Positions 2,833-16,590 of a stretch of DNA of 64,000 nucleotides are shown here, piece after piece (positions within the stretch are counted from its first letter, which is position 1; each line of letters begins with the position of its first letter). Position numbers and translations under genes: made by a program. Location of the stretch: NCBI RefSeq assembly GCF_000429685.1, contig NZ_AUCI01000001.1, positions 186,001 through 250,000 on the forward strand, written 5' to 3'. The notes under the pieces were generated by a model. The model ran no database searches, had not been told where the DNA came from, and worked only from the letters and a program-made list of their open reading frames with translations. The stretch is from Salibacterium aidingense DSM 18341. GTDB taxonomy: Bacteria; Bacillota; Bacilli; Bacillales; Marinococcaceae.

Positions 2833-5800
2833 CTATTGTGTAGAATATGTTCTTGCTGCTGCTTCAATGTGTTCAAAGGCCCAATGGGAGGGGAGAACAT
2901 CGGTAAAACTTGGGTCAGGAACACCATGTAAGGGTTGTCGATTCGTCATGGTATTTAACATGACAACGGCTTGTGCTCGTGTTAAAGGTTCATTTGGTTG
3001 AAAGGTTTGATTCTCATAACCCTTGATGATTCCTGCTTCCCGTGTTGCTTCAATCGCCCACTTCGCCCAATGTTGTTTCGTGTCGGTAAACGAGATAGGA
3101 ATACCCTCTTTTATTTCTAATTCCATATAGTTAGCTGCTATCACTGCCATTTGTGCTCTTGTCACCACATCGTTTGGTCGGAAGTTACCTTGTTCATCTC
3201 CCTGAAAGATTCCATACTCTTTCACAAATGCAATCCTACCAGCATACGGGTGGGACAAAGTAATATCGTTAAATGGTTTGCTTGTTATTTGTTCTCCTTC
3301 ATATCCCATTAAACGAGCTAACATAATCGCCAATTGCGCTCGCGTAACCGATTGATTCGGCTTAAAAGTACCATCTGGAAAGCCTTTAATATACCACGTG
3401 TACTTGTCTGCATCTTGTGTGAGCTCACGGTGAAAGTCAATGATCGTGAAGGTACTGAAATGATCAATTGAAAATTTGAGTCCCGGCTGCCCGCCCGGCA
3501 TAGTGACAGATTGTCCAACAACAACTTCTTTTTCCCCATTGGTGTGTTCAATAAAGATACCCAATTGTGCAAGGAAGGATGCTCGTTCTGTCGCACCTTC
3601 TGGTAATTCGATGTCGCGCAACGGCAATGTCACGGTGACAGGGCTGTTTGTCAGGTTGGTTTCAATCGTCATCGGTCTTGAGACGACTTCAATATTTTCG
3701 TCCTCCACCCATTCACGAACAACTTCTTCTGTACGTGCACGCTCTTCAATTTCTTCTTTTTTATCTTCTTCTTTAACCGGTACGAGTTTGAAGTAGAAGT
3801 CTTCATCAAGACCTTGTAACGAGTTGTTCGGAACTTGAATGAACACATTCGGGTTGTCGATTTCAAGTGTGATCTCATGTGTTTGTAGTAATAAAAGGGT
3901 ATCTGTCGGAATATCAACATTGACTTCACTGACTTCGTCGTTTTCATCTGGAATGATGATCCGTGCGATATTTTCCCCCGTTTCTTTAGCTTTATCTACG
4001 ATTTCTTCTGCTCGTTCTTTTGTAAAAGTCACGTCATCCGTGATGGTTCCATCGGCTTCCGTCGTGCGTTCGATTGGAATTCGCGTAATGTCTGTCGGGG
4101 CTTCACCGCCAATAGCGACATCGACTTCGATGACTTCGGTCTCTGCTTCACCCTCGGAGGTTCCCCCGCCGCCTCCGCTTCCGCCGTTTCCGCCGGAACC
4201 GCTTGAGCTGCTTTTTCTCGTGATTTCGAACTGATATTGACCGAGTAACACACGCGGATTGTCTGCGTCATATATCCCGACCGTAATCGTGTTTTCACCT
4301 ACTTCAAGCGGTAATTGACCCCAATCGGCAATTTTTGTGTCATTGACGTGAACTTTGACGACCTTATCGCTTGGGGCCGCTGGTGCCGGACTTAATTCAA
4401 CCTGATTGACGTCGTTTGGCACGCTTGCTTCATAGCCGCTTGGTTGATTCCCATCAAAGCTTTCAGAAGCGATAACCGTTGAATCTCCATCCATGATTCC
4501 TATTTGATCCGTTAACCGGCCGGACTCGTTTACATGATATGGTGTTTCACCAAGGTCAATCGCATCTTTTCCAATCAAGTCTCCAAGCTGGTTGTTTGAA
4601 TTAAGATTCTCCTCTATATGACTGTTGTCCAAGTCTGCATCATAAGCTAAGGTGTTGTCGTCTGCACCTTCCGGAAGGGCAAACGAAAGCTTATTTCCAT
4701 TAATTTCAAATGGGTCCTGAACAGGAACTCCGCCAAACGTTAATCCTGAGAGATCGATGGCTTCTTCGTTGATTGGTTTGTTGAAAATGATATTTATTTC
4801 CCCATCTTCCAAAAAGGTTGTCACGATTTCAAGCGGGATGATATGATTGGCTTTGTCAATGTCAGCTTGAGCTTCCGTATTTTCTGGTGTAATTGTTGAA
4901 AGCTCTGTGCTGCCTTCCCCCCTTGATACCACAGCACTGCCCTCCGCCGTCTCATCATATCCAACATCTAACGAATTACTAGGTGCAAATGATTCGTTCA
5001 ATTCGACAATCACTTCATTTCCATTGATTTCCTTTACATCTATCACCGTACGACCGTCCATTTCAAAGCTGGCAAAATCAACAGCTGCCAAGTCCTCTTT
5101 CACCGGCATGTTGAAGGTTAACTTCACCTTATCCGGGGTCTTATCATGGACCGTCACTTTTTCCAGCTTTAATTCATCACCGATGGTAAATGTTTGCGTT
5201 TTCGTCACCGAACGTTCATCGTCTGTTGCCCTTGCTTCAACCGTATAATCGCCAAGCTCCAACTCTTCCCCGACTTCGTAGGACCAACTGGAGTCGCCTG
5301 AGGCCCAGGTCAAAGTTCCATCTGCCTCCACTGGGTTTCCACCCGAATCTTTGACCGTGACGATCAAGGCATCTGAATTTACATAGACTTCTCCTGTCAC
5401 CGTTGGCTTATGCTCCGTTGTATTCCCTTTGGGTGATGTAATCTCTAGAGCGGCAGCAAACGGATCTTCCGCCTCAAAGCTGAAATCCTCAACTGCTGTC
5501 CCATCTGCTTCATCGCCTTTCAGATGACCTTCTGCACCCACATAATCGACATGCACCATCTCCTCAGTGGAAAGCTCAGTTCCAGCCGGTAACGTTAGAA
5601 TGACTTTGGATGAATCCATATCATAAACGGCTGCGGTTACATCAGTAACTCCGGTTCCATCGACCATTACGGTAAAGCCATCATTCTCACTTTCCCCTTC
5701 TCCTAAATCAAACATAACGGCTTTACCAAAATCAATCATGATGGTATTCCCGCCTTCGATAAAGCGGCCGCTCTCGGCAGTCGGCGGGTTTTTTACAAGC

Positions 5801-7644
5801 CCGTCGGTGGCAGCTTGTAATGCATCTAAAGCACTATCTACCTCGGTTGGTGTCGCATCATCATTATTTAACAAATCTTCCGCATCACTGATCGCATTTT
5901 GCAAAGCTGTCCAAGAGTCTTCGGTGTAATCTTCGTTTGCAATGCCCTCTGCTTCTTCAATTTGTTTTAGAAGCTCGCTTTTCGTTCTGTTGACTGTAAT
6001 AGTATACGTTTTCGTGCTACCATCTTGCGCAGTAACCTGTATTGCAATTTCATTGTTCCCAGGATCTAAATCAATGGAGCTACTAGGTTGTCCACTTGTA
6101 ATCGTTTCGCCGTTTACGGTAACAGTAGCATTGGCATCAGCAGCCGTAGGAGTCACCGTGATACTTGATTCTGCATAAGTAACATCCATATTGTAATCAG
6201 TAGTGCTCTCCTCAAAAGTAGGATCTAACGTACCAGTAGATAACGTAACGTCACTCAAATTGGCATTATTATTAATCCATTGCGCAAATAATGTCACATC
6301 TTCCTCACCAATAGAAAGCTCATCACCACCATTAAATGAAGTACCACTTCCATCACTTTTTGTATTCCAATTTAAAAAACTATATCCAGATCGTGTTAAA
6401 TTATTTGCGTTTCCTTCCACACTGGCTGTACTATTTGAATCATATACTTGATCACTCGGTACGTCACCGCTTTCATGACCATTTCCGTTATAGGATAGTA
6501 CATACTTTGTGTAAGTCTTCTTAACAGTGGCACGATTATCATTAGCACCATCCATAAAAACAACATATAGGTTATCATCAGCTGATTGTACAAAGTTTGC
6601 ATGATTTGATGTTCCTGAAGAAACAGGTTCCCCACCAACGCCTTCCCAATTATTATTGGCGGAATCGTACGCTTGAACTAACGTTTGGGCAGTAGCATCT
6701 TTAGTATAAACTACTGACGGATCGTCATTATTATCCATCGCAATGCTTATTTCACCGCCTGAACCTTCCGAAAAACGGGCCTCCCCAACCGTTTGCCAAC
6801 TACCGTCAAATGTTTTAACCGTAGATTTATATTCTCCTATCTCTGAAGTTGAATCTTCTAGATAAGCAACATATAATTGATTATTGCTATCAATAGCAAT
6901 ATCAGTCCCCTGAGAAATACCGTCAGCAATCCCAGAGTTTCCAACTGTTCCCCAAGTTGAACCATTGAATTTTTTTACAGTTATATCGCTATCAGAATAA
7001 ACAACATATGGCGTATTGTTCGTATCGAAGGTGATGCTCAGGAACGAAGTATTTGAACTTGAAAATCCATTGCTTCCGACTGTTTCCCAGCTTGTTCCAT
7101 TATATTTTTTAGCAACTAACTTATAAGAATGACTGGCATCTACATATAAAACATAAACGTTTCCATCGTGATCTACCGCTATATGATTATCATATATTGT
7201 TCCGTCAGAAAATCCATAATTTCCTACTACTTCCCAACTTGAACCGTTATACTTCATAACAGATGCCGAATTATCGTCAGAACCGTCTTTAAATAGCACA
7301 TACGGGGTACCATCTGGTCCTATTGACATATTGAGACCTGCTACAGCCCCAGGTGTAAATCCAGGTGACCCCACTGTTTCCCAATTATCCCCATTAAACT
7401 TTTTGACTGTAGCTCTGTCCGTCTGACTTCCATCCATATATGCAACATATGGTATATTATTGTCATCAAAATCAATATCCGTATATTGCGCAGTACCGTC
7501 AGAAAAGCCCTCATTACCAACAGATTCCCAGGCTGAGGTTGTCGCCTCAATTTCGGATTGGAAACCTGGTGTAATTAAATAAGAAAAACACACTAGCAAT
7601 AAAAGTCCTAATTTTCCGGATTTTGAAAATAAATTTTTGTACAT
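2833..7644 (-). CDS. large secreted SLH-anchored surface protein with seven-repeat propeller
   Basis: Cell-wall surface protein of 1603 residues. A signal peptide covers about 1-36. Residues 39-385 hold seven repeats of about 49 residues, each beginning W-x-x-VG and continuing with GFSDG, a D-x-(D/N)-x-x-x-(P/L)-YV-x-Y core and VKKFNG. This is consistent with a seven-bladed beta-propeller. Next come a Listeria-Bacteroides (Flg_new-like) repeat ending VTLFAQW, a cadherin-like sandwich ending KTYTITVNRT, a FIVAR-like helical module, and several Ig/SwmB-like modules. A Ser/Gly-rich linker (SSSSGSGG...) and a beta-rich region follow, then three C-terminal SLH domains (about 1435-1595) with GFPDGTFKPN/VTRAQ motifs. 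AAGGAG precedes the ATG. The domains suggest binding to an external polymer or surface. The ligand is unknown. Confidence 0.9.
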   Translation of the reverse strand: MYKNLFSKSGKLGLLLLVCFSYLITPGFQSEIEATTSAWESVGNEGFSDGTAQYTDIDFDDNNIPYVAYMDGSQTDRATVKKFNGDNWETVGSPGFTPGAVAGLNMSIGPDGTPYVLFKDGSDDNSASVMKYNGSSWEVVGNYGFSDGTIYDNHIAVDHDGNVYVLYVDASHSYKLVAKKYNGTSWETVGSNGFSSSNTSFLSITFDTNNTPYVVYSDSDITVKKFNGSTWGTVGNSGIADGISQGTDIAIDSNNQLYVAYLEDSTSEIGEYKSTVKTFDGSWQTVGEARFSEGSGGEISIAMDNNDDPSVVYTKDATAQTLVQAYDSANNNWEGVGGEPVSSGTSNHANFVQSADDNLYVVFMDGANDNRATVKKTYTKYVLSYNGNGHESGDVPSDQVYDSNSTASVEGNANNLTRSGYSFLNWNTKSDGSGTSFNGGDELSIGEEDVTLFAQWINNNANLSDVTLSTGTLDPTFEESTTDYNMDVTYAESSITVTPTAADANATVTVNGETITSGQPSSSIDLDPGNNEIAIQVTAQDGSTKTYTITVNRTKSELLKQIEEAEGIANEDYTEDSWTALQNAISDAEDLLNNDDATPTEVDSALDALQAATDGLVKNPPTAESGRFIEGGNTIMIDFGKAVMFDLGEGESENDGFTVMVDGTGVTDVTAAVYDMDSSKVILTLPAGTELSTEEMVHVDYVGAEGHLKGDEADGTAVEDFSFEAEDPFAAALEITSPKGNTTEHKPTVTGEVYVNSDALIVTVKDSGGNPVEADGTLTWASGDSSWSYEVGEELELGDYTVEARATDDERSVTKTQTFTIGDELKLEKVTVHDKTPDKVKLTFNMPVKEDLAAVDFASFEMDGRTVIDVKEINGNEVIVELNESFAPSNSLDVGYDETAEGSAVVSRGEGSTELSTITPENTEAQADIDKANHIIPLEIVTTFLEDGEINIIFNKPINEEAIDLSGLTFGGVPVQDPFEINGNKLSFALPEGADDNTLAYDADLDNSHIEENLNSNNQLGDLIGKDAIDLGETPYHVNESGRLTDQIGIMDGDSTVIASESFDGNQPSGYEASVPNDVNQVELSPAPAAPSDKVVKVHVNDTKIADWGQLPLEVGENTITVGIYDADNPRVLLGQYQFEITRKSSSSGSGGNGGSGGGGGTSEGEAETEVIEVDVAIGGEAPTDITRIPIERTTEADGTITDDVTFTKERAEEIVDKAKETGENIARIIIPDENDEVSEVNVDIPTDTLLLLQTHEITLEIDNPNVFIQVPNNSLQGLDEDFYFKLVPVKEEDKKEEIEERARTEEVVREWVEDENIEVVSRPMTIETNLTNSPVTVTLPLRDIELPEGATERASFLAQLGIFIEHTNGEKEVVVGQSVTMPGGQPGLKFSIDHFSTFTIIDFHRELTQDADKYTWYIKGFPDGTFKPNQSVTRAQLAIMLARLMGYEGEQITSKPFNDITLSHPYAGRIAFVKEYGIFQGDEQGNFRPNDVVTRAQMAVIAANYMELEIKEGIPISFTDTKQHWAKWAIEATREAGIIKGYENQTFQPNEPLTRAQAVVMLNTMTNRQPLHGVPDPSFTDVLPSHWAFEHIEAAARTYSTQ

Positions 7645-7920
7645 CGAATCTACTCCTTATGATAATGTACCTAATCAGGGGAAGGTCGAATATTTAGTTA
7701 CATACTATCAGTCTTGAGTATAATATTCCATGTAATCTTTAAACTTTTCAAAAATACCAGTGTGATCGGCAAAGGCAAATAAACAGAAAAAAGCAGGGAC
7801 AATCTAAAACAAGACTTGCATCCATGGGTAAATGGTTGTGAGTCCAAGAAACATGGGTGTAGCTAGCTCCTTTTCTCTCACCACCATTTGTTATTTTTGC
7901 TGTGTGTTTTCCTATGTCTA
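7645..7920. other. promoter-side spacer of the SLH gene
   Basis: AT-rich, no gene seen. It must hold the promoter of the large SLH gene (TATACT-like box near 7719-7724 on the minus strand), but I cannot pair it convincingly with a -35 box. Confidence 0.3.
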
Positions 7921-7958
7921 AAAAAAGCGGACCCGCTTTTATGCGGTGTCCGCTTTTT
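7921..7958 (-). terminator. terminator of the glcEFD-glcB operon
   Basis: AAAAAGCGGAC at 7922-7932 pairs with GTCCGCTTTTT at 7948-7958. A second short stem, CCGC/GCGG, lies inside. On the minus strand the stem ends in a U-run 22 bases after the malate synthase stop. It is symmetric, so it may work both ways. Confidence 0.85.
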
Positions 7959-7979
7959 CCACACTTTTCGGAACATCTT

Positions 7980-10163
7980 CTACCTGCGGGCGGCGGTCAT
8001 TTTCTGCTTTGCTTCCCGGCGGCGCTGGTGCAGGATGGGTTCAGTGTAGCCGCTTGGCTGGTCATATCCGTTAAAGACCAGGTCGCAGGCAGCCTGAAAC
8101 GCTGTAGATTCATCAAAATTCTCCGCCATTGGGACGTACCCCTCCACCCCTTGATTCTGCTCATCTACGATTTTGGCCATCCGTTTCATGGTATCGAGGA
8201 GCTGTTCTTCACTGCAGATGCCGTGATAAAGCCAGTTTGCCAGAAGCTGACTGGCTATCCGCAGGGTCGCCCGGTCTTCCATTAATGCAACATTGTTAAT
8301 ATCCGGCACTTTCGAGCAGCCAATACCCATTTCCACCCAGCGTACAACATAGCCGAGGATGCCCTGGGCGTTGTTATCCAGTTCTTCTTGTATATCTTCT
8401 TTCGTCCAGTCCGGATTTAGCGCGGTCGGCACGTTCAGGATATCGTCTTCCAATTCTTCGGATTGATGAAGAAGCTGGTTCTGGACTTCTTTTACATCCA
8501 TCTGATGATAATGAATGGCATGCAAAACAGCAGCAGTTGGCGAAGGGACCCAGGCCGTGTTGGCCCCTGCTTTCAGCTGGCCGGCTTTTTGTTCCAGCAT
8601 ATTTGCCATTAATTCCGGCATCGCCCACATTCCTTTGCCGATCTGGGCGCGCCCCTTCAGACCGGTTTCCAGCCCTTTGTATACATTTGACTTTTCATAA
8701 GCCTGCAGCCAGGTCGAACGTTTCATTTCTCCTTTTCGGATCATCGGTCCTGCTTCCATGGAAGTGTGGATTTCGTCGCCGGTACGGTCGAGAAAGCCGG
8801 TGTTTATAAAAACCACCCGATCTTTTACTTCGCGTATGCAGGCTTTCAGATTCAAAGAAGTACGGCGCTCTTCATCCATGACCCCGATTTTCAATGTATT
8901 CCGTGCAAGTTCCAGCATATCTTCGATTCGTTCAAATAAACGATTGGAGAACGCCGTTTCTTCGGCTCCGTGCATTTTCGGCTTTACGATATAAATCGAT
9001 TGCTCCCGGGAGTTCACATACGGACTGTTGCCAAGCAGATCATGTTTGGCAATCAGACTCGTCAGCACTCCGTCCAGGATCCCTTCCGGCATTTCCTTAT
9101 CGTTTTTATCCAGAACAGCCGGTGTGGTCATCAAGTGCCCAACATTACGGATGAACATGTGGGAGCGGCCGGAAAGAGTCAGCGTCCCCCCGTCTGGTGT
9201 GTTGTAATTCCGATCCGGGTTCAGCTTCCGGGTTACGGAGTTTGCCCCCTTGGTGAATGCCGTGGTTAGATCCCCTTTCATTAACCCTAGCCAGTTTCGA
9301 TAAACACGGACTTTATCCTCTGCATCCACGGCCGCTACCGCATCTTCACAATCCATGATCGTCGTGACCGCAGCTTCCAGCACCACGTCTTTCACCGCTG
9401 CTTTATCCGTTTTCCCGATAGGATGCTCTTCATCGATTTGTATTTCCACATGGAGGTTATTGTTTTGGATCAGCAGCGCTGACGGATTGGTATTATCCCC
9501 TTGGAACCCAGAAAACCGGTCGGGATTCGACAGTCCGGTTTTTGTACCCTCCCCGCTTTCTGCCTGCAGCGTCCCATTTTCAACTGTATAACGAACGACA
9601 TCCTGATGGGACCCCTGCTGCAGGGGAGCAATTTCATCTAAAAACGCTTTGGCCCAGGCGATTACTTTTTCTCCCCGTTTTGGATTGTACTCTGCTGTTT
9701 TCTCCGCTCCGTTTTCCTCTGGAATAACATCCGTTCCGTACAGTGCGTCATAGAGGCTGCCCCACCTTGCGTTAGCTGCATTCAGCGCATATCTTGCGTT
9801 ATCCACCGGGACAATAAGCTGAGGGCCGGGCTGTCCGGCAATTTCTTCATCCACCTTTTCGGTGGTGATCTGAAAATCATCTCCCTCCGGCTCCAGGTAG
9901 CGGATGTCTTGTAAAAACTGCTTATATTTATCAAAATCAAAATTTCTCTTATTATCCTGATGCCAGGCATGAATCTGTTCCTGTATAGCTTCCCTTTTTC
10001 TCAGCAGTTCTTTATTTTCGGGTTCAAAGTCGAAATATAAGGCTTCAAGTTCTTTCCAGAAGTATTCCTTCTCTACTCCAGTGCCCGGTAAAACTTCCTT
10101 ATTAACAAACGTATATAATTCCTCGGCCACTTGAAGATGTCCCGCTTCCATATATTTCCCCAT
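7980..10163 (-). CDS. glcB: malate synthase G
   Basis: Condenses glyoxylate with acetyl-CoA to L-malate in the cytoplasm. At 727 residues it has the usual length of the G isoform, longer than malate synthase A. Recognisable blocks are [16 protein letters not shown] near 270-285, which lines the Mg/glyoxylate site, [15 protein letters not shown], and the C-terminal [19 protein letters not shown] with [19 protein letters not shown] ribosome site precedes the start. It is the last gene of the glycolate operon, 122 bases after the FAH-family gene. That gap carries an element shared with the glcE leader, so partly independent control is possible. No isocitrate lyase is near, pointing to glycolate-derived glyoxylate as substrate. 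Confidence 0.95.
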
Positions 10164-10182
10164 TTTTCATCACTCCTCATTA

Positions 10183-10225
10183 TTGCTTATTAAGAAACTA
10201 GGTTTTATATCAATGCTGTGCATTG
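10183..10225 (-). promoter_or_regulatory. glcB leader element shared with glcE, plus palindrome
   Basis: Bases 10183-10205 match 19 of 23 positions with 15255-15277 ahead of glcE: TTGCTTATTA, one variable base, then GAAAC, three variable bases and GTTT. The core GAAAC-N3-GTTTY is an inverted repeat typical of a dimeric regulator site. Next to it is a perfect palindrome, CAATGC-TGT-GCATTG, at 10211-10225. The site lies just upstream of the ribosome site. Confidence 0.55.
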
Positions 10226-10285
10226 TCTGATTTCTCCTGTCATTTTTCTCCTTATTTCTTTCAGTTGGATTCCGAAAAATGGAAA

Positions 10286-11083
10286 CTATTTAAAAGATAC
10301 CGGCCCCGTCGCTTCTTTTGCTTTCACAAAGGAATTGGTCAGGTCACCTATTCCTTCAACAGCGCAGGTTATGGTGCTTCCTGCTGTCACCATTTCAGCT
10401 CCGGCCGGACTTCCTGTCAAGAGGACATCTCCTTTTTTCAATGTCATCACGCGGGATAAATACGCAATCATTTCTTGTATGGGAACAATCATGAGTGCGG
10501 TAGAACTGTTCTGTTTTTCTATGTTGTTTAAACTCGCTTTCACCCGCGCCTCCAGCGGATTGAGTTCCGTTTCCAGATAGGGGCCGAGCGGGGTGAACGT
10601 ATCAAACGATTTACCGACCATCCAATGATTATCTTCCCGAAAATACTGCGGAGCCGTCACATCGTTTCCAACGGTGTAACCAAACACATAATCCAGGGCT
10701 TCTGATGTGGTTACATTTTTTGTATCTTTTCCTATGACAACAGCTAATTCCGATTCAAATTTCACTTCGTTAATAGCCGCAGGCATGACGATGTCGTCAT
10801 CCGGACCGATCACAGAGGAGGTTGGTTTAAAGAAAAATACCGGAATGTCTGGCAGCGCTTCCGGAAGTTCCTCGGTTTTTGTGACAAAGTTTGCTCCAAT
10901 TCCGATGATCTGATTTGGTTCCAGCGGAGCAAGCAGTTTCACCTCTTCCTGAGAAAAGCTGCGGCCAGTATAATTCCAATGATCAAAAATGTTCCCTTCT
11001 ATTTCTTTTAATACATTTCCTGCCGCTACTCCCTGCAGTACTTCAGAGGAAGCAGCAAACCTGGCAAACTTCATAGGTTCCAT
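10286..11083 (-). CDS. fumarylacetoacetate-hydrolase-family protein
   Basis: Probable metal-dependent hydrolase, decarboxylase or isomerase acting on a small oxo-acid, 265 residues. The FAH fold core spans about 60-255. It shows FFFKPTSSVIGPDDDIVMP, a metal-ligand region EVKFESELAVVIGKD, FGYTVGNDVTAPQ, GKSFDTFTPLGP and the terminal LLTGSPAGAEMV. It sits between glcD and glcB, 12 bases after the glcD stop, inside a glycolate/glyoxylate operon. Family members include oxaloacetate decarboxylases and acylpyruvases. A role in trimming glyoxylate-derived or oxaloacetate side products is inference. The exact substrate is unknown. Confidence 0.8.
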   Translation of the reverse strand: MEPMKFARFAASSEVLQGVAAGNVLKEIEGNIFDHWNYTGRSFSQEEVKLLAPLEPNQIIGIGANFVTKTEELPEALPDIPVFFFKPTSSVIGPDDDIVMPAAINEVKFESELAVVIGKDTKNVTTSEALDYVFGYTVGNDVTAPQYFREDNHWMVGKSFDTFTPLGPYLETELNPLEARVKASLNNIEKQNSSTALMIVPIQEMIAYLSRVMTLKKGDVLLTGSPAGAEMVTAGSTITCAVEGIGDLTNSFVKAKEATGPVSFK

Positions 11084-11095
11084 CCTTTCTTGGCT

Positions 11096-12553
11096 TCATT
11101 TGGAAGCGGCTGCTTTTTCTTCTTTTTTCACTTCTCCGCAACGGCCTGGAGAAGGAAATAGTTTTCCAGCATTTAATAAATAATACGGATTGAACACTTC
11201 CCGAATATTCGTTTGCGCCTCTATTTCCTTGTCGGAGAAAACAAACCGCATTTCTTCCCGTTTTTCAATGCCAACCCCGTGCTCCCCGGTAATAGAGCCG
11301 CCAACATCTGCGCACGCCTGAAGGCAGGCACTCCCCGCTTCAAGCGCCTTATCGGTTTCTCCGGGAATTCTAGAGTCAAATAGAATAAGCGGATGAAGGT
11401 TCCCGTCGCCGGCGTGAAATATATTAGCTATCCGCAATCCGTATTCTTGGCTGATTTCCCGAATGCGGCCCAGGACCTGGGGCAGAGTACTGCGGGGGAT
11501 CACGCCATCCTGCACAAGGTAATCCGGAGAAATCGCCCCCATCGCTCCAAACCCTGTTTTTCGATTGGCCCACCACCGGGCTCTTTCCTGCTCATCTTCT
11601 GCCACCTTCACGGAGCGGACATTCCGCTTTTCACACACGTCCAGTATTTTATTGATCTGTTCTTCAATGCCGGCGGAGATACCATCGACTTCTATGAGCA
11701 GCAGGGCTTCTATATCTTTTGGATGACCGACGGGATAGGCAGCGGATTCTACAGCTTCAATGGCTGTGCCGTCCATCATCTCAAGGGCTGCCGGAACAAT
11801 CCCTTCGGACACAATATCCGAAACGGCCTGACTTCCGTCTGCAACATCGTCAAAGTAAGCCAGCACCGTTTTCTTTTCCTCCGGATGCGTTAAAATACGA
11901 ACCGTAATTTTCGTAACAATGCCAAGCGTTCCTTCCGATCCTGTTAAAATGCCCAGTAAATCATAACCGGGGACGTCCATAATCCCGTTCTTCCCGATTT
12001 CAATGATGGCTCCGTCCGGCGTGACCACTTCCAGACCAAGAATGTGGTTTGTTGTTACCCCGTATTTTAAACAGTGGGCCCCGCCGGCATTTTCCGCTAC
12101 ATTTCCGCCAATCGTACAACAGTATTGACTCGAGGGATCCGGAGCATAATAGTATCCTTTATCGGAAATGGAATTGGTCAAGGTAAGATTGACATATCCA
12201 GGTTCTACGACCGCACAACGGTTTTTCAAATCTACGTTCAGAAGACGTTTCATTTTCACCAGACTGATAATGACTTCTCCGTTCAGCGGCACAGCACCTC
12301 CGCTCAGCCCTGTACCGGCTCCTCTGGCAAGAAACGGAAGATCATTTCTGGACAAGTACGAGACGATTTCCGCTGTTTCTTCGGTGTTTTTCGGAAATAC
12401 GACCGCTTTTGGAAGGTAGCTGTGGATGGTGAACCCATCGTTTTCATAGGCTGTCAGATCCTCTTTGTGAAACAAAATCTCCTTTTCTCCTACGATGGCG
12501 GCAAGATTTTTTATATGCTTATCATTGGTCTGCAGCCTTTTTTTACGGCGCAT
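11096..12553 (-). CDS. glcD: glycolate oxidase subunit GlcD (FAD-linked)
   Basis: FAD subunit oxidising glycolate to glyoxylate, electrons passing to the Fe-S subunit GlcF. The chosen start (MRRKK, 12553) overlaps the glcF stop by one base (TAATG) behind AAAGGAGG, giving 485 residues. An in-frame ATG 14 codons earlier lies within glcF and lacks a ribosome site. The FAD-binding type 4 domain covers about 40-220, with the flavin loop FLARGAGTGLSGGAVP and PDPSSQYCCTIGGNVAENAGG. The C-terminal domain carries NIFHAGDGNLHPLILFD and GEHGVGIEKR. The operon order E-F-D differs from the D-E-F order of Escherichia coli. Confidence 0.93.
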   Translation of the reverse strand: MRRKKRLQTNDKHIKNLAAIVGEKEILFHKEDLTAYENDGFTIHSYLPKAVVFPKNTEETAEIVSYLSRNDLPFLARGAGTGLSGGAVPLNGEVIISLVKMKRLLNVDLKNRCAVVEPGYVNLTLTNSISDKGYYYAPDPSSQYCCTIGGNVAENAGGAHCLKYGVTTNHILGLEVVTPDGAIIEIGKNGIMDVPGYDLLGILTGSEGTLGIVTKITVRILTHPEEKKTVLAYFDDVADGSQAVSDIVSEGIVPAALEMMDGTAIEAVESAAYPVGHPKDIEALLLIEVDGISAGIEEQINKILDVCEKRNVRSVKVAEDEQERARWWANRKTGFGAMGAISPDYLVQDGVIPRSTLPQVLGRIREISQEYGLRIANIFHAGDGNLHPLILFDSRIPGETDKALEAGSACLQACADVGGSITGEHGVGIEKREEMRFVFSDKEIEAQTNIREVFNPYYLLNAGKLFPSPGRCGEVKKEEKAAASK

Positions 12554-13914
12554 TATTCCTGCCTCCTTTGCTCTTCTTCTTTTTGGTAAGCCCAATCCAG
12601 GAGCTGGACGGTGTGTACCACGTTGGCACTTCTGCCGTATTTTTTCACGCCCATCGCCATCTGCAGCATACAGCCGGGATTCCCCATGGAAATCATCTCC
12701 ACCTCCTCCGGTACGTTTTTCATCTTGCTTTCGAGCACATCTTCCGCCATTTCCGGGTTGGTAATATTATAGATTCCGGCACTCCCGCAGCAGCGGTCGG
12801 CATTTTCCATCGGTACCATTTCCACACCGGGAACATCAAGGAGAATTTCACGAGGTTCCTGCCGCACCCCCTGCCCGTGTGCCAAATGGCAGGCATCATG
12901 ATAGGTAAGGCGGGTGTTCAGCTCGGCCGTTGGTTTATCATATCCTGTATCATGCAGGTATTTGGAAACATCGACGACTTTTTCAGCGAATGCTTCCGCT
13001 TTCTCCCGCCATTCGGTATCTACTTCCCGGAAAAGTTCCGGATATTCCTTCAGCATACAGCCGCAGCCCGCTGCGTTTCCAACTACCGTATCTGCCTGTT
13101 TGAAAGCTTCCATATTCTGTTTTGCCAGTTTTCTTCCCATATCCCGGTCCCCCGCATGAACATGCAGCGCTCCGCAGCATGTCTGGTTTTGAGGGACAGC
13201 AACATCATTGCCGTTTCTCGTCAGAACGTTAATCGTGCTTTCATTGACATCACTAAACATGACATCCATCACACAACCGGAAAAGAAAGCTATTTCTCGT
13301 TTCGATTCCGTATCAGCTTTCACGACCGTTTCGTGTTTATATTTCTTCCGGATGGGCTCCTGCACCTCCGGCATGACCGCTTCCATTAATTCAAGATGTT
13401 CCGGCATTGCCTTCAGCATTCCTGTTTTGCGGACGAGCGTCTGCACTCCGCTTTTTTGATAAAATTTCAATAAATTCCCGAAAAACTGAAGCCGTCCGGG
13501 ATGAGGGAAAAGTCCGTGCAAGAAAAAGCGGCTCACCCCTTTTCGCCAGCCTGTCAGCGGCATGGCCTGCCGGATCTGCCCGCGTGCTTCTTCAATCAAA
13601 CCGCCTACGTCTACATCTGCCGGACAGGCTGTCGTGCATGCTTTACAGTCCAGGCATGCAAACACTGGATCGGTAAATGGTTCGCTTACTTCCAGTTTTC
13701 CTTCTGCTACTGCTTTAATTAAATGGACCCTTCCGCGGGGAGAATGCTGTTCCTGGCCTGTGATTTCATAAGTGGGGCAGGCTTCCAGGCACATACCGCA
13801 GTGAACACAATCCGCCCACTTGTCTTCATCGGGTTTATCCCTCCATAAATAATTACTCAACTGCGACGTTGAACAAGGAGGTTCTTCAAACGCTGTTTTT
13901 CCATCAGTATCCAT
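12553..13914 (-). CDS. glcF: glycolate oxidase iron-sulfur subunit GlcF
   Basis: Fe-S electron-transfer subunit of glycolate oxidase, 453 residues. Two ferredoxin-type 4Fe-4S motifs lie near residues 37-47 (CVHCGMCLEACP) and about 90-100 (CLDCKACTTACP). Two CCG cysteine-rich domains follow, with CCGALHVHAG and DACHLAHGQG...DRCCGSAG, the type that binds a further cluster or quinone-linked partner. The start ATG follows the glcE stop directly (TAGATG) with an AGGAGGG site inside glcE. The stop overlaps the glcD start by one base. The tight coupling fits a stoichiometric complex. Confidence 0.93.
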   Translation of the reverse strand: MDTDGKTAFEEPPCSTSQLSNYLWRDKPDEDKWADCVHCGMCLEACPTYEITGQEQHSPRGRVHLIKAVAEGKLEVSEPFTDPVFACLDCKACTTACPADVDVGGLIEEARGQIRQAMPLTGWRKGVSRFFLHGLFPHPGRLQFFGNLLKFYQKSGVQTLVRKTGMLKAMPEHLELMEAVMPEVQEPIRKKYKHETVVKADTESKREIAFFSGCVMDVMFSDVNESTINVLTRNGNDVAVPQNQTCCGALHVHAGDRDMGRKLAKQNMEAFKQADTVVGNAAGCGCMLKEYPELFREVDTEWREKAEAFAEKVVDVSKYLHDTGYDKPTAELNTRLTYHDACHLAHGQGVRQEPREILLDVPGVEMVPMENADRCCGSAGIYNITNPEMAEDVLESKMKNVPEEVEMISMGNPGCMLQMAMGVKKYGRSANVVHTVQLLDWAYQKEEEQRRQE

Positions 13915-15225
13915 CTACAGCCCTCCTACGAATCGTTTTGGGTTCAGGGTACGCTGCGGATCTATCTTTGTTTTTATCCCTTCCATTAAGAAAAAATGAG
14001 CCGGTGGCTCTCCCCAGACACTAACCTCCCGGCGTAAAGCCAGAGAAGCGTGCTGAACAACGAGATAACCTCCTTTTTCCTCCACTGCTTCTCTTAAGGA
14101 GGAAATGGAGTCTGCCAGCTGCTTTTTGTCTCCCTTGAGATGCAGCTGACAAAGGCCATGGCCCATGCCGCCATGTCCGCCTTCACATAAAGCTTCACGC
14201 TCCCCTTCTTTTAATACTTCCAGTACGTCACTATGTTGTACACCGATTTTTACCAGCACTTCCGTTCCTTGATGTTGTTCCGAGGTATCAAGTGCGAACG
14301 TATGTTGGAACCGCTCCCAAAAGGCACCGGCTTCTTCGACGTTCAAAATGGATAAGCGGGCATTTGCGGGCTGTATGTTTCGAATATAGTCTTCTTGATA
14401 AAACACAGAACTTGCCACATCTTCAAGCGCTGCGGCCAGCGTAAAAGAAGCATCCCCTGTCAAAGTTTCAGCAAGTGCAGGAGTAAGCAGCTCCAGCGAG
14501 ACCGGTTCCATTCTGGATTTCATCAGCTTCTCGGAAAAAGCCTGAATGTCATCGATATCACCTTCTGGAAAGCTAAGCAGGACCAGACTTTCATGTTCTG
14601 GAAGCGGGCGCAGCTTCAGCCCTATTTCTGTGATGACGCCAAGTGTCCCCATGGAGCCGACAAACAGTTTGTTCATATCATATCCTGCTACATTTTTGAC
14701 GACTTTGCCGCCGGTTCGGATGATTTCTCCGTTTGCGTAGGCCACCCTCAAACCTATGACAAGATCCCGCGCCGACCCATAAGCGAGTCTTTTTGGGCCG
14801 CTTTCATTGGCAGCGATCACCCCGCCGATCGTTGCATTTTCTGCGTGGATGGGATCGATGGGGAGCTTCTGACCGTGGGAAGCCAAATAGTCCTGTAATT
14901 CGCGGAAGGGGGTTCCCGGTTTGACGAAAATCGTCATGTCACCTACAGAATGTTCCTTTATCCCCCTGAAGGAAGCGGTTGATAATAAAATGTCCGCAGT
15001 ATCCTCTGTTCCGCCTAATCCTCTTTTTGAACCACAACCGCAAACATTCACTTTCTTTTCCGCAGTGGAGGCAAAAGTAAGAATGGCTGCAATCTCCTCT
15101 TCTGTCCGAGGAAAGACCAATACCTGCCCATCATTCCCATACCTGGTCTCCGCTGTTTTTTGTTCCTGCACGTGGTCTGCCGGCAGAATTGACGTTAACT
15201 CCTTCCAAACATCAGCTGTTATCAT
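13915..15225 (-). CDS. glcE: glycolate oxidase subunit GlcE (FAD-binding)
   Basis: Second FAD-binding subunit of glycolate oxidase, 436 residues, first gene of the operon. The FAD-binding type 4 domain covers about 30-210 with VNVCGCGSKRGLGG, FVKPGTPFRELQDYL, ATIGGVIAANESGPKRLAYGS and GGKVVKNVAGYDMNKLFVGSMGTLGVIT. The C-terminal cap ends PQRTLNPKRFVGGL, typical of GlcD/GlcE proteins. AATGGAGGG precedes the ATG. About 30 bases upstream is the GAAAC-N3-GTTTC palindrome that recurs at glcB. It is a paralogue of glcD and shorter at both ends. Confidence 0.9.
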   Translation of the reverse strand: MITADVWKELTSILPADHVQEQKTAETRYGNDGQVLVFPRTEEEIAAILTFASTAEKKVNVCGCGSKRGLGGTEDTADILLSTASFRGIKEHSVGDMTIFVKPGTPFRELQDYLASHGQKLPIDPIHAENATIGGVIAANESGPKRLAYGSARDLVIGLRVAYANGEIIRTGGKVVKNVAGYDMNKLFVGSMGTLGVITEIGLKLRPLPEHESLVLLSFPEGDIDDIQAFSEKLMKSRMEPVSLELLTPALAETLTGDASFTLAAALEDVASSVFYQEDYIRNIQPANARLSILNVEEAGAFWERFQHTFALDTSEQHQGTEVLVKIGVQHSDVLEVLKEGEREALCEGGHGGMGHGLCQLHLKGDKKQLADSISSLREAVEEKGGYLVVQHASLALRREVSVWGEPPAHFFLMEGIKTKIDPQRTLNPKRFVGGL

Positions 15226-15254
15226 GGACGCCCTCCATTCAGCTTATATAATTG

Positions 15255-15278
15255 TTGCTTATTATGAAACCTTGTTTC
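15255..15278 (-). promoter_or_regulatory. glcE leader operator-like element
   Basis: A perfect inverted repeat, GAAAC-CTT-GTTTC, at 15266-15278 is preceded by TTGCTTATTAT. The 23-base stretch 15255-15277 agrees at 19 positions with the one ahead of glcB. Recurrence at the two ends of one pathway operon suggests a common regulator. Confidence 0.55.
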
Positions 15279-15382
15279 TTTTTTATTGAAAAAAGGAAGC
15301 TGTATAACACAGCTCTTTTCAATTATTAAACCATTTCTCTTTCTTCTTTTCAATAATATTTTAAAAATTTAATAAAGGAGAA

Positions 15383-15422
15383 AACCTTATCCCTGTCTGA
15401 TGTAGCTTCCCAGGATAAGGTT
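15383..15422 (-). terminator. terminator of nadBCA
   Basis: AACCTTATCC at 15383-15392 pairs with GGATAAGGTT at 15413-15422 around a 20-base loop. On the minus strand the stem is followed by TTCTCCTTTATT. It lies 70 bases after the nadA stop. A second small hairpin (AGCTGT/ACAGCT, 15300-15316) flanked by A/T runs lies between it and glcE. Confidence 0.6.
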
Positions 15423-15492
15423 ATGCTTATAAGTAGGTGTTGATTCATAAGAAACTTTTAATCCTTGGCCGCGGTTTTTCGTTTATCTATGA

Positions 15493-16590
15493 TTATTGTT
15501 GGAGCATGCGTTCCAGAGCAGTCCAGGCTTCGTGCTTTGTTGCAGGGTCCACTTCAATTACGTGATGGGGAGCAGGGGACGAAATGCTTTCCAATGACCA
15601 TAATAAATGAGGGAGATCAATACGGTTCATCGTTAAGCAGGGACACATATTGGGGTTCAGGGAGTAGACAGTCTTATCTGTTTCTTCCTGCATTAAGCGG
15701 TGGACGAGGTTCATTTCTGTACCGACAGCCCATGTACTTCCTGACGGCGCCTCCCGGATGGTTTGAATAATTTTATTGGTGGAACCGGCGGCATCTGCGG
15801 CCTGCACCACATCAAACATGCACTCCGGATGAACGATAACGCTGGCGTCCGGGTTTTCCTTTCTCACCTGGCGGACATTGTCCATCGTGAATTTTTCATG
15901 GACCGAGCAGTGCCCTTTCCATAAAATCATCCGGACCTGTTCTGCATCTCCCTCCCACTCCAGTGTTTCCCGGATGGGGTCCCATACCGCCATTTTTTCC
16001 AAAGGGAGACCCATCTCATAAGCGGTATTTCGACCTAGATGCTGATCAGGCAAAAATAATATGCGCTCTTTCTGAGCAAACGCCCACGCCAGCATGTTTT
16101 CTGCATTCGACGATGTCAAGGTTGCCCCTTGGTTCCTTCCGCAGAAAGCTTTAATGGCTGCCGTACTGTTCACATAGGTCAAAGGGATGATCGTATCGCC
16201 AAACTCGCCCTGGAGCTTTTTCCAGGCCTTCTCCAGCTGGCTGATTTCTGCCATATCCGCCATGGAACAGCCCGCCCGCAGATCGGGGAGCAGGACGGTC
16301 TGATTCGCTTCAGACAATATATCCGCGGTTTCTGCCATAAAGTGAACACCGCAGAATACAATATACTCCGCGCCATTATTAGCGGCCCCGGTTTTTGCCA
16401 GCTGCAGGGAATCGCCTGTTTCATCAGCAAATTGTATGACTTCGTCTTTTTGATAATAATGCCCCGGCATAAATAAACGAGGACCCAGCTTCCGTTTTAT
16501 TTCCCATACCCGTTCTTCCATCTCCTGCTGGCTCATGGCTTTTATATGTTCCGGCAGAGCGGCTGCCTGAAAACTTTCCAGCACACTCAT
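15493..16590 (-). CDS. nadA: quinolinate synthase
   Basis: Condenses iminoaspartate with dihydroxyacetone phosphate to quinolinate, the second step of de novo NAD synthesis. It is a 365-residue, long Bacillus-type NadA with a 4Fe-4S cluster. Cluster cysteines are Cys80 in VFCGVHFMAETADIL, the cysteine of HPECMFDVVQ and one in NPNMCPCLTMN. GHYYQKDEV (about 43-51) and YVNSTAAIKA are substrate-site blocks. The start overlaps the nadC stop as ATGA. The oxygen-sensitive cluster explains why a cysteine desulfurase is encoded divergently. Confidence 0.96.
   Translation of the reverse strand: MSVLESFQAAALPEHIKAMSQQEMEERVWEIKRKLGPRLFMPGHYYQKDEVIQFADETGDSLQLAKTGAANNGAEYIVFCGVHFMAETADILSEANQTVLLPDLRAGCSMADMAEISQLEKAWKKLQGEFGDTIIPLTYVNSTAAIKAFCGRNQGATLTSSNAENMLAWAFAQKERILFLPDQHLGRNTAYEMGLPLEKMAVWDPIRETLEWEGDAEQVRMILWKGHCSVHEKFTMDNVRQVRKENPDASVIVHPECMFDVVQAADAAGSTNKIIQTIREAPSGSTWAVGTEMNLVHRLMQEETDKTVYSLNPNMCPCLTMNRIDLPHLLWSLESISSPAPHHVIEVDPATKHEAWTALERMLQQ

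What the first reader, a model, noticed from the sequence alone, without database searches (positions are those of the whole stretch)
10183..15278. A 23-nt element repeated in the glcE and glcB leaders
Bases 10183-10205 and 15255-15277 agree at 19 of 23 positions: TTGCTTATTA, a variable base, GAAAC, three variable bases, GTTT. The core is the dyad GAAAC-N3-GTTTY. They sit at matching places, 20-30 bases before the glcE and glcB starts, and nothing similar was noticed elsewhere in the window. This looks like the operator of an unidentified regulator of glycolate/glyoxylate use, and would make glcB partly independent of the long operon.
Basis: seen in the sequence. Interest (0 to 1): 0.6.

Follow-up and report, generated by a model that had tools for sequence, protein, structure and literature searches.

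The report
Three-box IclR operator for glyoxylate genes
A short DNA switch found in front of two glycolate-use genes is very probably the landing site of one particular IclR-family control protein, and the same protein and switch occur together at malate synthase, glycolate oxidase and permease genes in many related bacteria.

Summary
The element is a 25-bp operator on the coding (minus) strand, RAAAC-N3-GTTKC-N7-GMAAY: three copies of one half-site in alternating direction (window 15254-15278 and 10182-10206). A third copy in the genome precedes an LctP/GlcA-type permease gene.

The likely regulator is an IclR-family protein on another contig (G000:C23:35995-36762), 77% identical to one that sits beside the operator in a relative. 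Of 29 family genomes, 11 have this IclR and all 11 carry the operator; 0 of 18 others do. Among the 26 genomes with malate synthase G, the site precedes glcB in 10 of 11 with the IclR and 0 of 15 without. In 299 genomes of the order, all 23 genomes with sites at E <= 0.005 have the IclR; of 26 order-level site loci examined, 24 precede glcB, glcE or an lctP-like gene.

Three-box IclR sites are a published kind (Suvorova & Gelfand 2021), so this is a new member with a proposed regulon. Repression relieved by glyoxylate is inferred, not shown. An independent glcB promoter in the window is not established. No binding was tested, and kinship among genomes is not fully controlled.

The parts
15254..15278 (-). 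Operator 1, before glcE: GAAAC AAG GTTTC ATAATAA GCAAC; boxes at 15274-15278 (forward), 15266-15270 (reverse), 15254-15258 (forward)
   Evidence: profile E 7.3e-5 in own genome
10182..10206 (-). Operator 2, before glcB: AAAAC CTA GTTTC TTAATAA GCAAT; boxes at 10202-10206, 10194-10198, 10182-10186; weakest of the three own sites
   Evidence: profile E 8.7e-4
13915..15225 (-). glcE, glycolate oxidase FAD subunit (436 aa)
   Evidence: ORF; FAD_binding_4; best NCBIfam match GlcE, below its cut-off
12553..13914 (-). glcF, glycolate oxidase Fe-S subunit (453 aa)
   Evidence: ORF; CCG and 4Fe-4S domains; GlcF below cut-off, LdhH scores higher but also below cut-off
11096..12553 (-). glcD, glycolate oxidase FAD subunit; start chosen at an internal ATG by inference (the listed ORF starts at TTG 12595)
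   Evidence: ORF; GlcD best match in NCBIfam, below cut-off; FAD_binding_4 and FAD-oxidase_C
10286..11083 (-). Fumarylacetoacetate-hydrolase-family gene of the operon; similar genes also lie next to glcB or the IclR gene in several genomes of the order
   Evidence: neighbourhoods
7980..10163 (-). glcB, malate synthase G (727 aa)
   Evidence: (above NCBIfam cut-off)
15297..15315 (-). Terminator-like hairpin after the nadA-like gene, ending 18 nt upstream of operator 1
   Evidence: 14 such sites in 7700-15700 against 9.2, sd 2.9, in shuffles, so weak evidence alone
15493..16590 (-). nadA-like gene, the upstream neighbour of glcE here; relatives with glcE have a GntR-family gene in this place
   Evidence: ORF; the name nadA is recalled, not tested

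Best explanation
The repeated element is the operator of an IclR-family regulator encoded elsewhere in the same genome (G000:C23:35995-36762). It has three half-sites (GMAAC) in alternating direction, which make two overlapping palindromes: GAAAC-N3-GTTKC and GTTKC-N7-GMAAC. The regulator binds it before glcEFD, glcB and an LctP/GlcA-type permease, joining uptake and oxidation of glycolate with the condensation of glyoxylate to malate. Most likely it represses: in most relatives examined the operator starts just downstream of the predicted glcB -10 box. Glyoxylate, or glycolate, probably releases it. Shown here: the element, its conservation, its genes, its association with this IclR group and its frequent physical linkage to it. 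Inferred: binding, direction of control, effector.
For: Three strong profile hits in the own genome, all before glycolate/glyoxylate or permease genes. Own IclR 77% identical to the G002 IclR that sits directly before operator + glcB. Family: operator at E < 0.01 in 11 of 11 genomes with the orthologue and 0 of 18 without. Among 26 genomes with glcB: site in 10 of 11 with the IclR (PWM 26.9-38.5), 0 of 15 without (at most -1.7 in 14; G008, of which 246 bases upstream are held, at most 0.7). Order: sites at E <= 0.03 in 31 of 49 genomes with the IclR and 7 of 250 without; at E <= 0.005, 23 of 23 site genomes have it. 32 of 37 sites in IclR genomes of that sample lie within 10 kb of the IclR gene. 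30 of 32 site loci examined lie before glcB, glcE or lctP-like genes (one, L207, at only 27% identity). In different genomes the IclR gene is next to glcB, lctP, GntR-glcE or glcE. The box layout equals the published three-box IclR type (PMC8222616). 26 of 29 glcB sites examined have a TTG-type -35, a 17-18 spacer and a -10 that starts 14-26 nt upstream of the site.
Against: No binding, expression or effector experiment. The profile and PWM were trained on 14 of the sites, 7 of them among the 10 positives (an eighth, G004, is identical to one of these); untrained positives are G001 and G005 in the family and 27 of 45 genomes in the order. Kinship: the 15 genomes with glcB and no IclR come from five genera (g5-g9), the IclR genomes from seven others; the two genera that contain both kinds (g1, g10) do not help, because the three genomes there without the IclR (G018, G019, G025) also lack glcB. 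18 of 49 IclR genomes of the order gave no site at E <= 0.03 (stricter filters). 12 of the 44 distinct places (E 0.009-0.03) were not fetched. G027 has the IclR and a site at lctP but none before its glcB-GntR-glcEFD operon. Own IclR is not linked to the glc genes and has no site of its own. No clear promoter was found before the own glcE, glcB or lctP sites, nor consistently at the 8 glcE and 5 lctP sites examined.
Confidence: 0.85

Rival explanations
1. The element is the operator of the GntR/FCD-family regulator that sits beside glcE in relatives (GlcC/GlcR-like).
For: A GntR gene lies directly upstream of glcE in all 11 other family genomes with a glcE orthologue (43-100% identity to the G004 query itself). 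GntR GlcR represses glcDEF in Paracoccus denitrificans (PMC11323563, passages).
Against: The own genome carries the element but its best GntR match is 35% and unlinked. Six genomes with the GntR and glcE but without the IclR (G010, G017, G021-G024) have no site. Five genomes with the IclR but without a glcE orthologue (G001, G005, G006, G020, G026) have the site, before glcB; their best GntR matches are 36-41% or below the limit.
Confidence: 0.05
2. Same operator and same IclR, but acting as an activator at some promoters, as BhcR does at the bhc cluster.
For: The closest NCBIfam models include BhcR, an IclR-type activator of glyoxylate assimilation (PMC11323563 section 5). Promoters at glcE and lctP sites are not clear.
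Against: At glcB the operator begins downstream of the predicted -10 box in 26 of 29 sites examined, a place from which activation is unlikely.
Confidence: 0.2
3. The element is an RNA-level signal in the leader or a mobile repeat rather than a protein-binding operator.
For: It lies 19-29 nt before the start codons and contains inverted repeats.
Against: It goes with one DNA-binding protein across genomes and is absent before glcB in the 15 family genomes without that protein. Half-site bases and spacings are kept while the flanks change. It is not a mobile repeat: three strong places in 4.4 Mb.
Confidence: 0.02
4. Chance similarity of two AT-rich leaders.
For: A loose pattern with one mismatch is not specific: 30 hits in the own genome against 18 for the reversed control.
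Against: 0.02 matches expected in the window against 2 found; 0 of 300 shuffles; conservation and association as above.
Confidence: 0.01

Closest known systems
Three-box IclR-family binding sites (Suvorova & Gelfand 2021, PMC8222616)
   Same: Alternating boxes, one pair like group 2 (TGRAACA-N1-2-TGTTYCA), the other like group 1 subgroup GTT-11-AAC, which that paper finds over-represented in Firmicutes; positions near the translation start.
   Different: Box position 2 is often C (GCAAC) where the published group 1 box has R; the outer T and A of group 2 are not regularly kept.
E. coli IclR and AllR
   Same: IclR-type domains; glyoxylate metabolism; malate synthase as a target (aceBAK, IclR; the gene content of aceBAK is recalled); some ligand-pocket positions shared.
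   Different: Different operator (IclR TGGAAATNATTTCCA, PMC8222616 Table 1), different malate synthase type, NCBIfam scores far below the equivalog cut-offs (162.7 against 380; 123 against 406).
BhcR of Paracoccus denitrificans (PMC11323563)
   Same: IclR-type regulator of glyoxylate assimilation after glycolate oxidation, in an organism that also uses a GntR regulator for glycolate oxidase.
   Different: BhcR controls the beta-hydroxyaspartate cycle as an activator; score 204.5 against a cut-off of 350.
KdgR
   Same: Nearest NCBIfam model (205.3 bits); operator also built on GAAAC/GTTTC (PMC8222616 Table 1).
   Different: Below its cut-off of 275; targets here are glycolate/glyoxylate genes, not pectin genes.
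PcaU of Acinetobacter baylyi
   Same: IclR-family operator with a third, external half-site needed for binding (as cited in PMC8222616).
   Different: Other half-site sequence; aromatic catabolism.

Membership tests
IclR-family operator, three-box type | Three half-sites in alternating direction with inner spacings of about 3-4 and 7-8 bases | tested here: met
   14 of 14 sites align without gaps: box 1 to box 2 spacing 3, box 2 to box 3 spacing 7; sites with other spacings would not have been found by this ungapped profile
IclR-family operator, three-box type | Box sequences GRAAC/GTTYC | tested here: inconclusive
   Box 1 GAAAC in 13 of 14; box 2 (reversed) GAAAC or GCAAC in 13 of 14; box 3 GAAAC or GCAAC in 12 of 14, so M rather than R at position 2
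IclR-family operator, three-box type | A cognate IclR-family protein that co-occurs with the site | tested here: met
   11 of 11 against 0 of 18 genomes; 10 of 11 against 0 of 15 genomes with glcB; order 31 of 49 against 7 of 250
IclR-family operator, three-box type | Direct binding of the protein | not testable with these tools
   needs EMSA or footprinting
IclR protein family | HTH_IclR and IclR_C domains | tested here: met
   Pfam PF09339 53.3 bits and PF01614 179.9 bits, both above cut-off
E. coli IclR / AllR / KdgR / BhcR equivalogs | Score above the NCBIfam cut-off | tested here: not met
   162.7/380, 123/406, 205.3/275, 204.5/350
Glyoxylate-binding IclR regulators | Pocket residues that bind the ligand's oxygens (Table 1 of PMC11323563: G160, A161, D212, S239, S241) | tested here: inconclusive
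   Own protein S, A, E, S, S: 3 of 5 identical (positions placed by eye from the alignment); S239 and S241 in 38 of 38 orthologues, but also in 18 and 11 of 25 paralogues
GntR/FCD operator (GlcC/GlcR) | The site co-occurs with the GntR gene | tested here: not met
   No site in 6 genomes with GntR and glcE but no IclR; site present in the own genome without that GntR

The most novel reading that the evidence does not exclude
The three-box operator is a two-state switch. One IclR dimer can sit on either the 13-bp (boxes 1-2) or the 17-bp (boxes 2-3) palindrome, which share box 2, and the ligand (glyoxylate against pyruvate) sets which pair is used. The same protein could then repress glcB from just downstream of its start site and act differently at glcE and lctP, where the site often follows a terminator-like tail with no clear promoter. 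In this lineage the IclR would also have taken over glcEFD alone after loss of the GntR regulator, while glcB moved from the IclR locus into the glc operon and kept its operator.
Probability: 0.15. Interest if true: 0.65.

Novelty: new member of a known kind. Interest (0 to 1): 0.45.

Why it matters
It proposes a function and a target list for an IclR group found in 49 of 299 sampled genomes of this order, and ties glycolate uptake, glycolate oxidation and malate synthase G into one regulon by an operator that can be tested directly. [quoted passage not shown] The alternating three-box operator also offers a compact case for the question, raised in PMC8222616, of whether IclR proteins dimerise on DNA in two ways.

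Tried and rejected
GntR as the binder: pursued first because it flanks glcE in relatives. Dropped when the own genome proved to lack it and the site went with the IclR instead.

UTRA-domain GntR search: no bearing on the question.

Loose 14-position pattern with one mismatch over 12 genomes: mostly chance hits (30 against 18 control in the own genome), and its list was cut short. It did lead to the glcB sites of G002 and G004. Two other zero-mismatch hits that I read (L051, L065) lie inside coding frames and score below 17; the remaining ones were dropped unread on their PWM score.

No call names the source organism or the order. That it is Bacillales-like is recalled from gene content only.

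Contrast inside genera: I first took g1 and g10 as contrasts free of kinship. On checking, the genomes there without the IclR also lack glcB, so the contrast says nothing about the operator; confidence was lowered from 0.87 to 0.85 for that.

Ligand pocket comparison: compatible with a small oxo-acid, but not specific enough to name glyoxylate.

Promoter scan: useful for glcB in relatives only. In one search, 13 of the 26 promoters counted beat all but 5% of single-base shuffles, the others do not (fractions up to 0.64), and many of the genomes are close kin; the consistent placement is the argument. The three misses are the own glcB, L209 and L203. L199 was left out of that list by oversight.

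IclR tree: the base is largely unresolved. The 38 high-identity proteins need 2 label changes (1 in 50% of bootstrap trees); a long-branch own paralogue (L092) joins the same open fork. One origin is neither shown nor excluded.

In one search the upstream slice of G008 was mis-cut at a contig end; one search repeated it on the whole locus.

Literature: searches (listings only, apart from the two papers opened) showed no paper that names this regulator, operator or regulon in this group. Supplementary tables of PMC8222616 were not available, so a prediction there cannot be excluded. PMC8222616: outline, abstract, passages and the whole Results section seen. PMC11323563: passages and section 5 seen.
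Full report
OBSERVATION. The two copies are real and at the stated places. The window holds exactly two matches with up to 3 mismatches; 0.02 are expected. The two 80-nt leaders share a 23-mer at 19 of 23 positions; 0 of 300 shuffles did so. All genes concerned lie on the minus strand. Alignment with relatives extends the element to 25 bp, RAAAC-N3-GTTKC-N7-GMAAY on that strand. In the own genome (4.42 Mb) the strict pattern gives three places with 0-1 mismatch; with up to 3 mismatches 7 places against 3 for the reversed control. The third place lies before a 594-aa L-lactate permease family gene, LctP above its NCBIfam cut-off and also similar to glycolate permease GlcA below cut-off.

GENES. 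The window order is nadA-like (name recalled) | operator 1 - glcE - glcF - glcD - FAA-hydrolase family - operator 2 - glcB. glcB is malate synthase G above cut-off. The glycolate oxidase subunits match their models below cut-off, and the GlcF protein scores higher with LdhH, so substrate identity (glycolate against lactate) rests on the company of glcE, glcD and glcB.

RELATIVES. A family search with GlcE found orthologues in 11 other genomes (44-58% identity; G010 34% and broken). Four of them (G002, G003, G004, G028) carry the element directly before glcE. In all 11 a GntR/FCD gene lies directly upstream of glcE. A looser scan then showed the element before glcB at a separate locus in G002 and G004, with an IclR-family gene immediately upstream. 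Further neighbourhoods: G003 OYE-IclR-[site]-glcB; G028 IclR-GntR-[site]-glcEFD-[site]-glcB-FAH-lctP; G027 IclR-[site]-lctP; G020 (same genus as the window) IclR-[site]-glcB (OYE named by eye).

THE REGULATOR. The own genome has an orthologue of that IclR at C23:35995-36762, 77% identical to the G002 protein, next best 38%. It carries HTH_IclR and IclR_C. An OYE-type gene lies near it as in G002 and G003, but glcB is not there, which fits a move of glcB into the glc operon (inference). By contrast the own genome's best match to the relatives' GntR is 35% and unlinked. No site was found before the own IclR gene.

CO-OCCURRENCE IN THE FAMILY. A sequence-only profile of 14 sites was run over 29 family genomes (E-values rough). 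At E < 0.01 it gives 17 hits, in exactly the 11 genomes that have an IclR at 56% identity or more; 0 of 18 others. The next value is 0.054. G001 and G005 were not in the training set. glcB itself is present in 26 of 29 genomes. Before glcB the PWM scores 26.9 to 38.5 in 10 of 11 genomes with the IclR (7 of these ten trained it, an eighth is identical) and at most -1.7 in 14 of the 15 without; for G008 only 246 bases upstream are held and the whole locus has nothing above 0.7. G027 is the exception: its site is at lctP, and its glcB-GntR-glcEFD operon has none. Kinship limits this test: genomes with and without the IclR fall in different genera, except in g1 and g10, where those without it (G018, G019, G025) also lack glcB.

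CO-OCCURRENCE IN THE ORDER. In 299 sampled genomes, 49 have the IclR at E <= 1e-70 and 38 have a site at E <= 0.03 (both calls drew 299 and list the same handles where visible). 31 have both, 7 a site only, 18 the IclR only. Without the four training genomes the counts are 27 of 45 against 7 of 250. At E <= 0.005 all 23 site genomes have the IclR. Presence of glcB in the 250 others was not tested. Of 37 sites in IclR genomes, 32 lie within 10 kb of the IclR gene; the other five are the own three, G036:C37 and G268:C22. Of 32 site loci checked (6 family, 26 order), 30 precede a target: glcB 26 (one, L200, inside a longer possible frame of glcB), glcE 2, lctP-like 2 (one at 27% identity). L211 and L212, from genomes without the IclR, precede none of the reference genes. 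Of 44 distinct places, 12 weaker ones (E 0.009-0.03) were not fetched. Fisher values ignore kinship.

LAYOUT AND MECHANISM. Suvorova & Gelfand 2021 (PMC8222616; abstract, passages and Results read) describe two IclR motif groups, GKTYCRYW3-4RYGRAMC and TGRAACAN1-2TGTTYCA, and three-box sites in 32 of 181 orthologous groups. The element here joins these two layouts (GTT-11-AAC plus GAAAC-N3-GTTTC), with M in place of R at box position 2. Of 29 glcB sites examined, 26 have a TTG-type -35, a 17-18 spacer and a -10 that starts 14-26 nt upstream of the operator. Taking the start site 12 nt after the first base of the -10, the operator begins at about +3 to +15, a repressor's place (inference). The window's own glcB leader lacks that promoter; the best guess by eye is an extended -10, TGATATAAA, running into box 1. 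Before operator 1 a terminator-like hairpin ends 18 nt away, so the glcE promoter is unresolved; the 8 glcE and 5 lctP sites examined show no consistent promoter. The effector is inferred from the pathway and from IclR, AllR and BhcR, which respond to glyoxylate (PMC11323563, passages and section 5); pocket residues agree only in part.

CONTROL FROM A PARALOGUE. In five genomes of genus g7 another IclR gene (35-37% identity) is followed by GGAAC-N3-GTTCC-N7-GGAAC; in the one whose neighbours were read (L115) a KDPG-aldolase-like gene follows (name by eye). So the three-box layout belongs to the wider protein family, while the base at box position 2 appears to separate the regulons.

VERDICT. 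An ordinary kind of operator, correctly spotted, now with a candidate regulator and a regulon that recurs across an order. It is a new member of a known kind. The strongest open points are direct binding, the sign of control, the effector, and the promoters of glcE and glcB in this genome.

Noticed in passing
L115-L119 (site next to the IclR gene, e.g. L115:2328-2352); L121:1455-1479: A paralogous IclR gene with a GGAAC-N3-GTTCC-N7-GGAAC operator (AGAAC-N3-GTTCC-N7-GGAAC in L121); in L115 a KDPG-aldolase-like and a deoxygalactonokinase-like gene follow (names by eye): same three-box layout, other specificity.
   Followed up: partly
window 15297-15315 (-); also L012, L063, L052, L205, L206, L182, L080: By eye, most sites before glcE and the own lctP site follow a T-rich or terminator-like stretch by roughly 10-25 nt, unlike glcB sites, which mostly follow a consensus-like promoter.
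   Followed up: partly
window 15225-15493: The GntR/FCD gene that precedes glcE in the 11 other family genomes with glcE is missing here; the best match in the genome is 35% and unlinked.
   Followed up: yes
L211, L212 (G143, G033, genus g17): Conserved site-like sequence AAAACTGTGTTTTTTAATATGCAAC in genomes without this IclR at E <= 1e-70; none of the reference genes is next to it.
   Followed up: no
L022 (G010:C44:98158-99345): glcE is broken by three in-frame TGA codons.
   Followed up: no
L074, L061, L209: cre-like sequences (recalled consensus, seen by eye) overlap or precede some glcB and lctP promoters, suggesting added catabolite control in those genomes.
   Followed up: no
window 2833-7644 (-): A 1603-aa secreted repeat protein that ends in S-layer-homology-like repeats (read by eye) lies downstream of glcB.
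   Followed up: no
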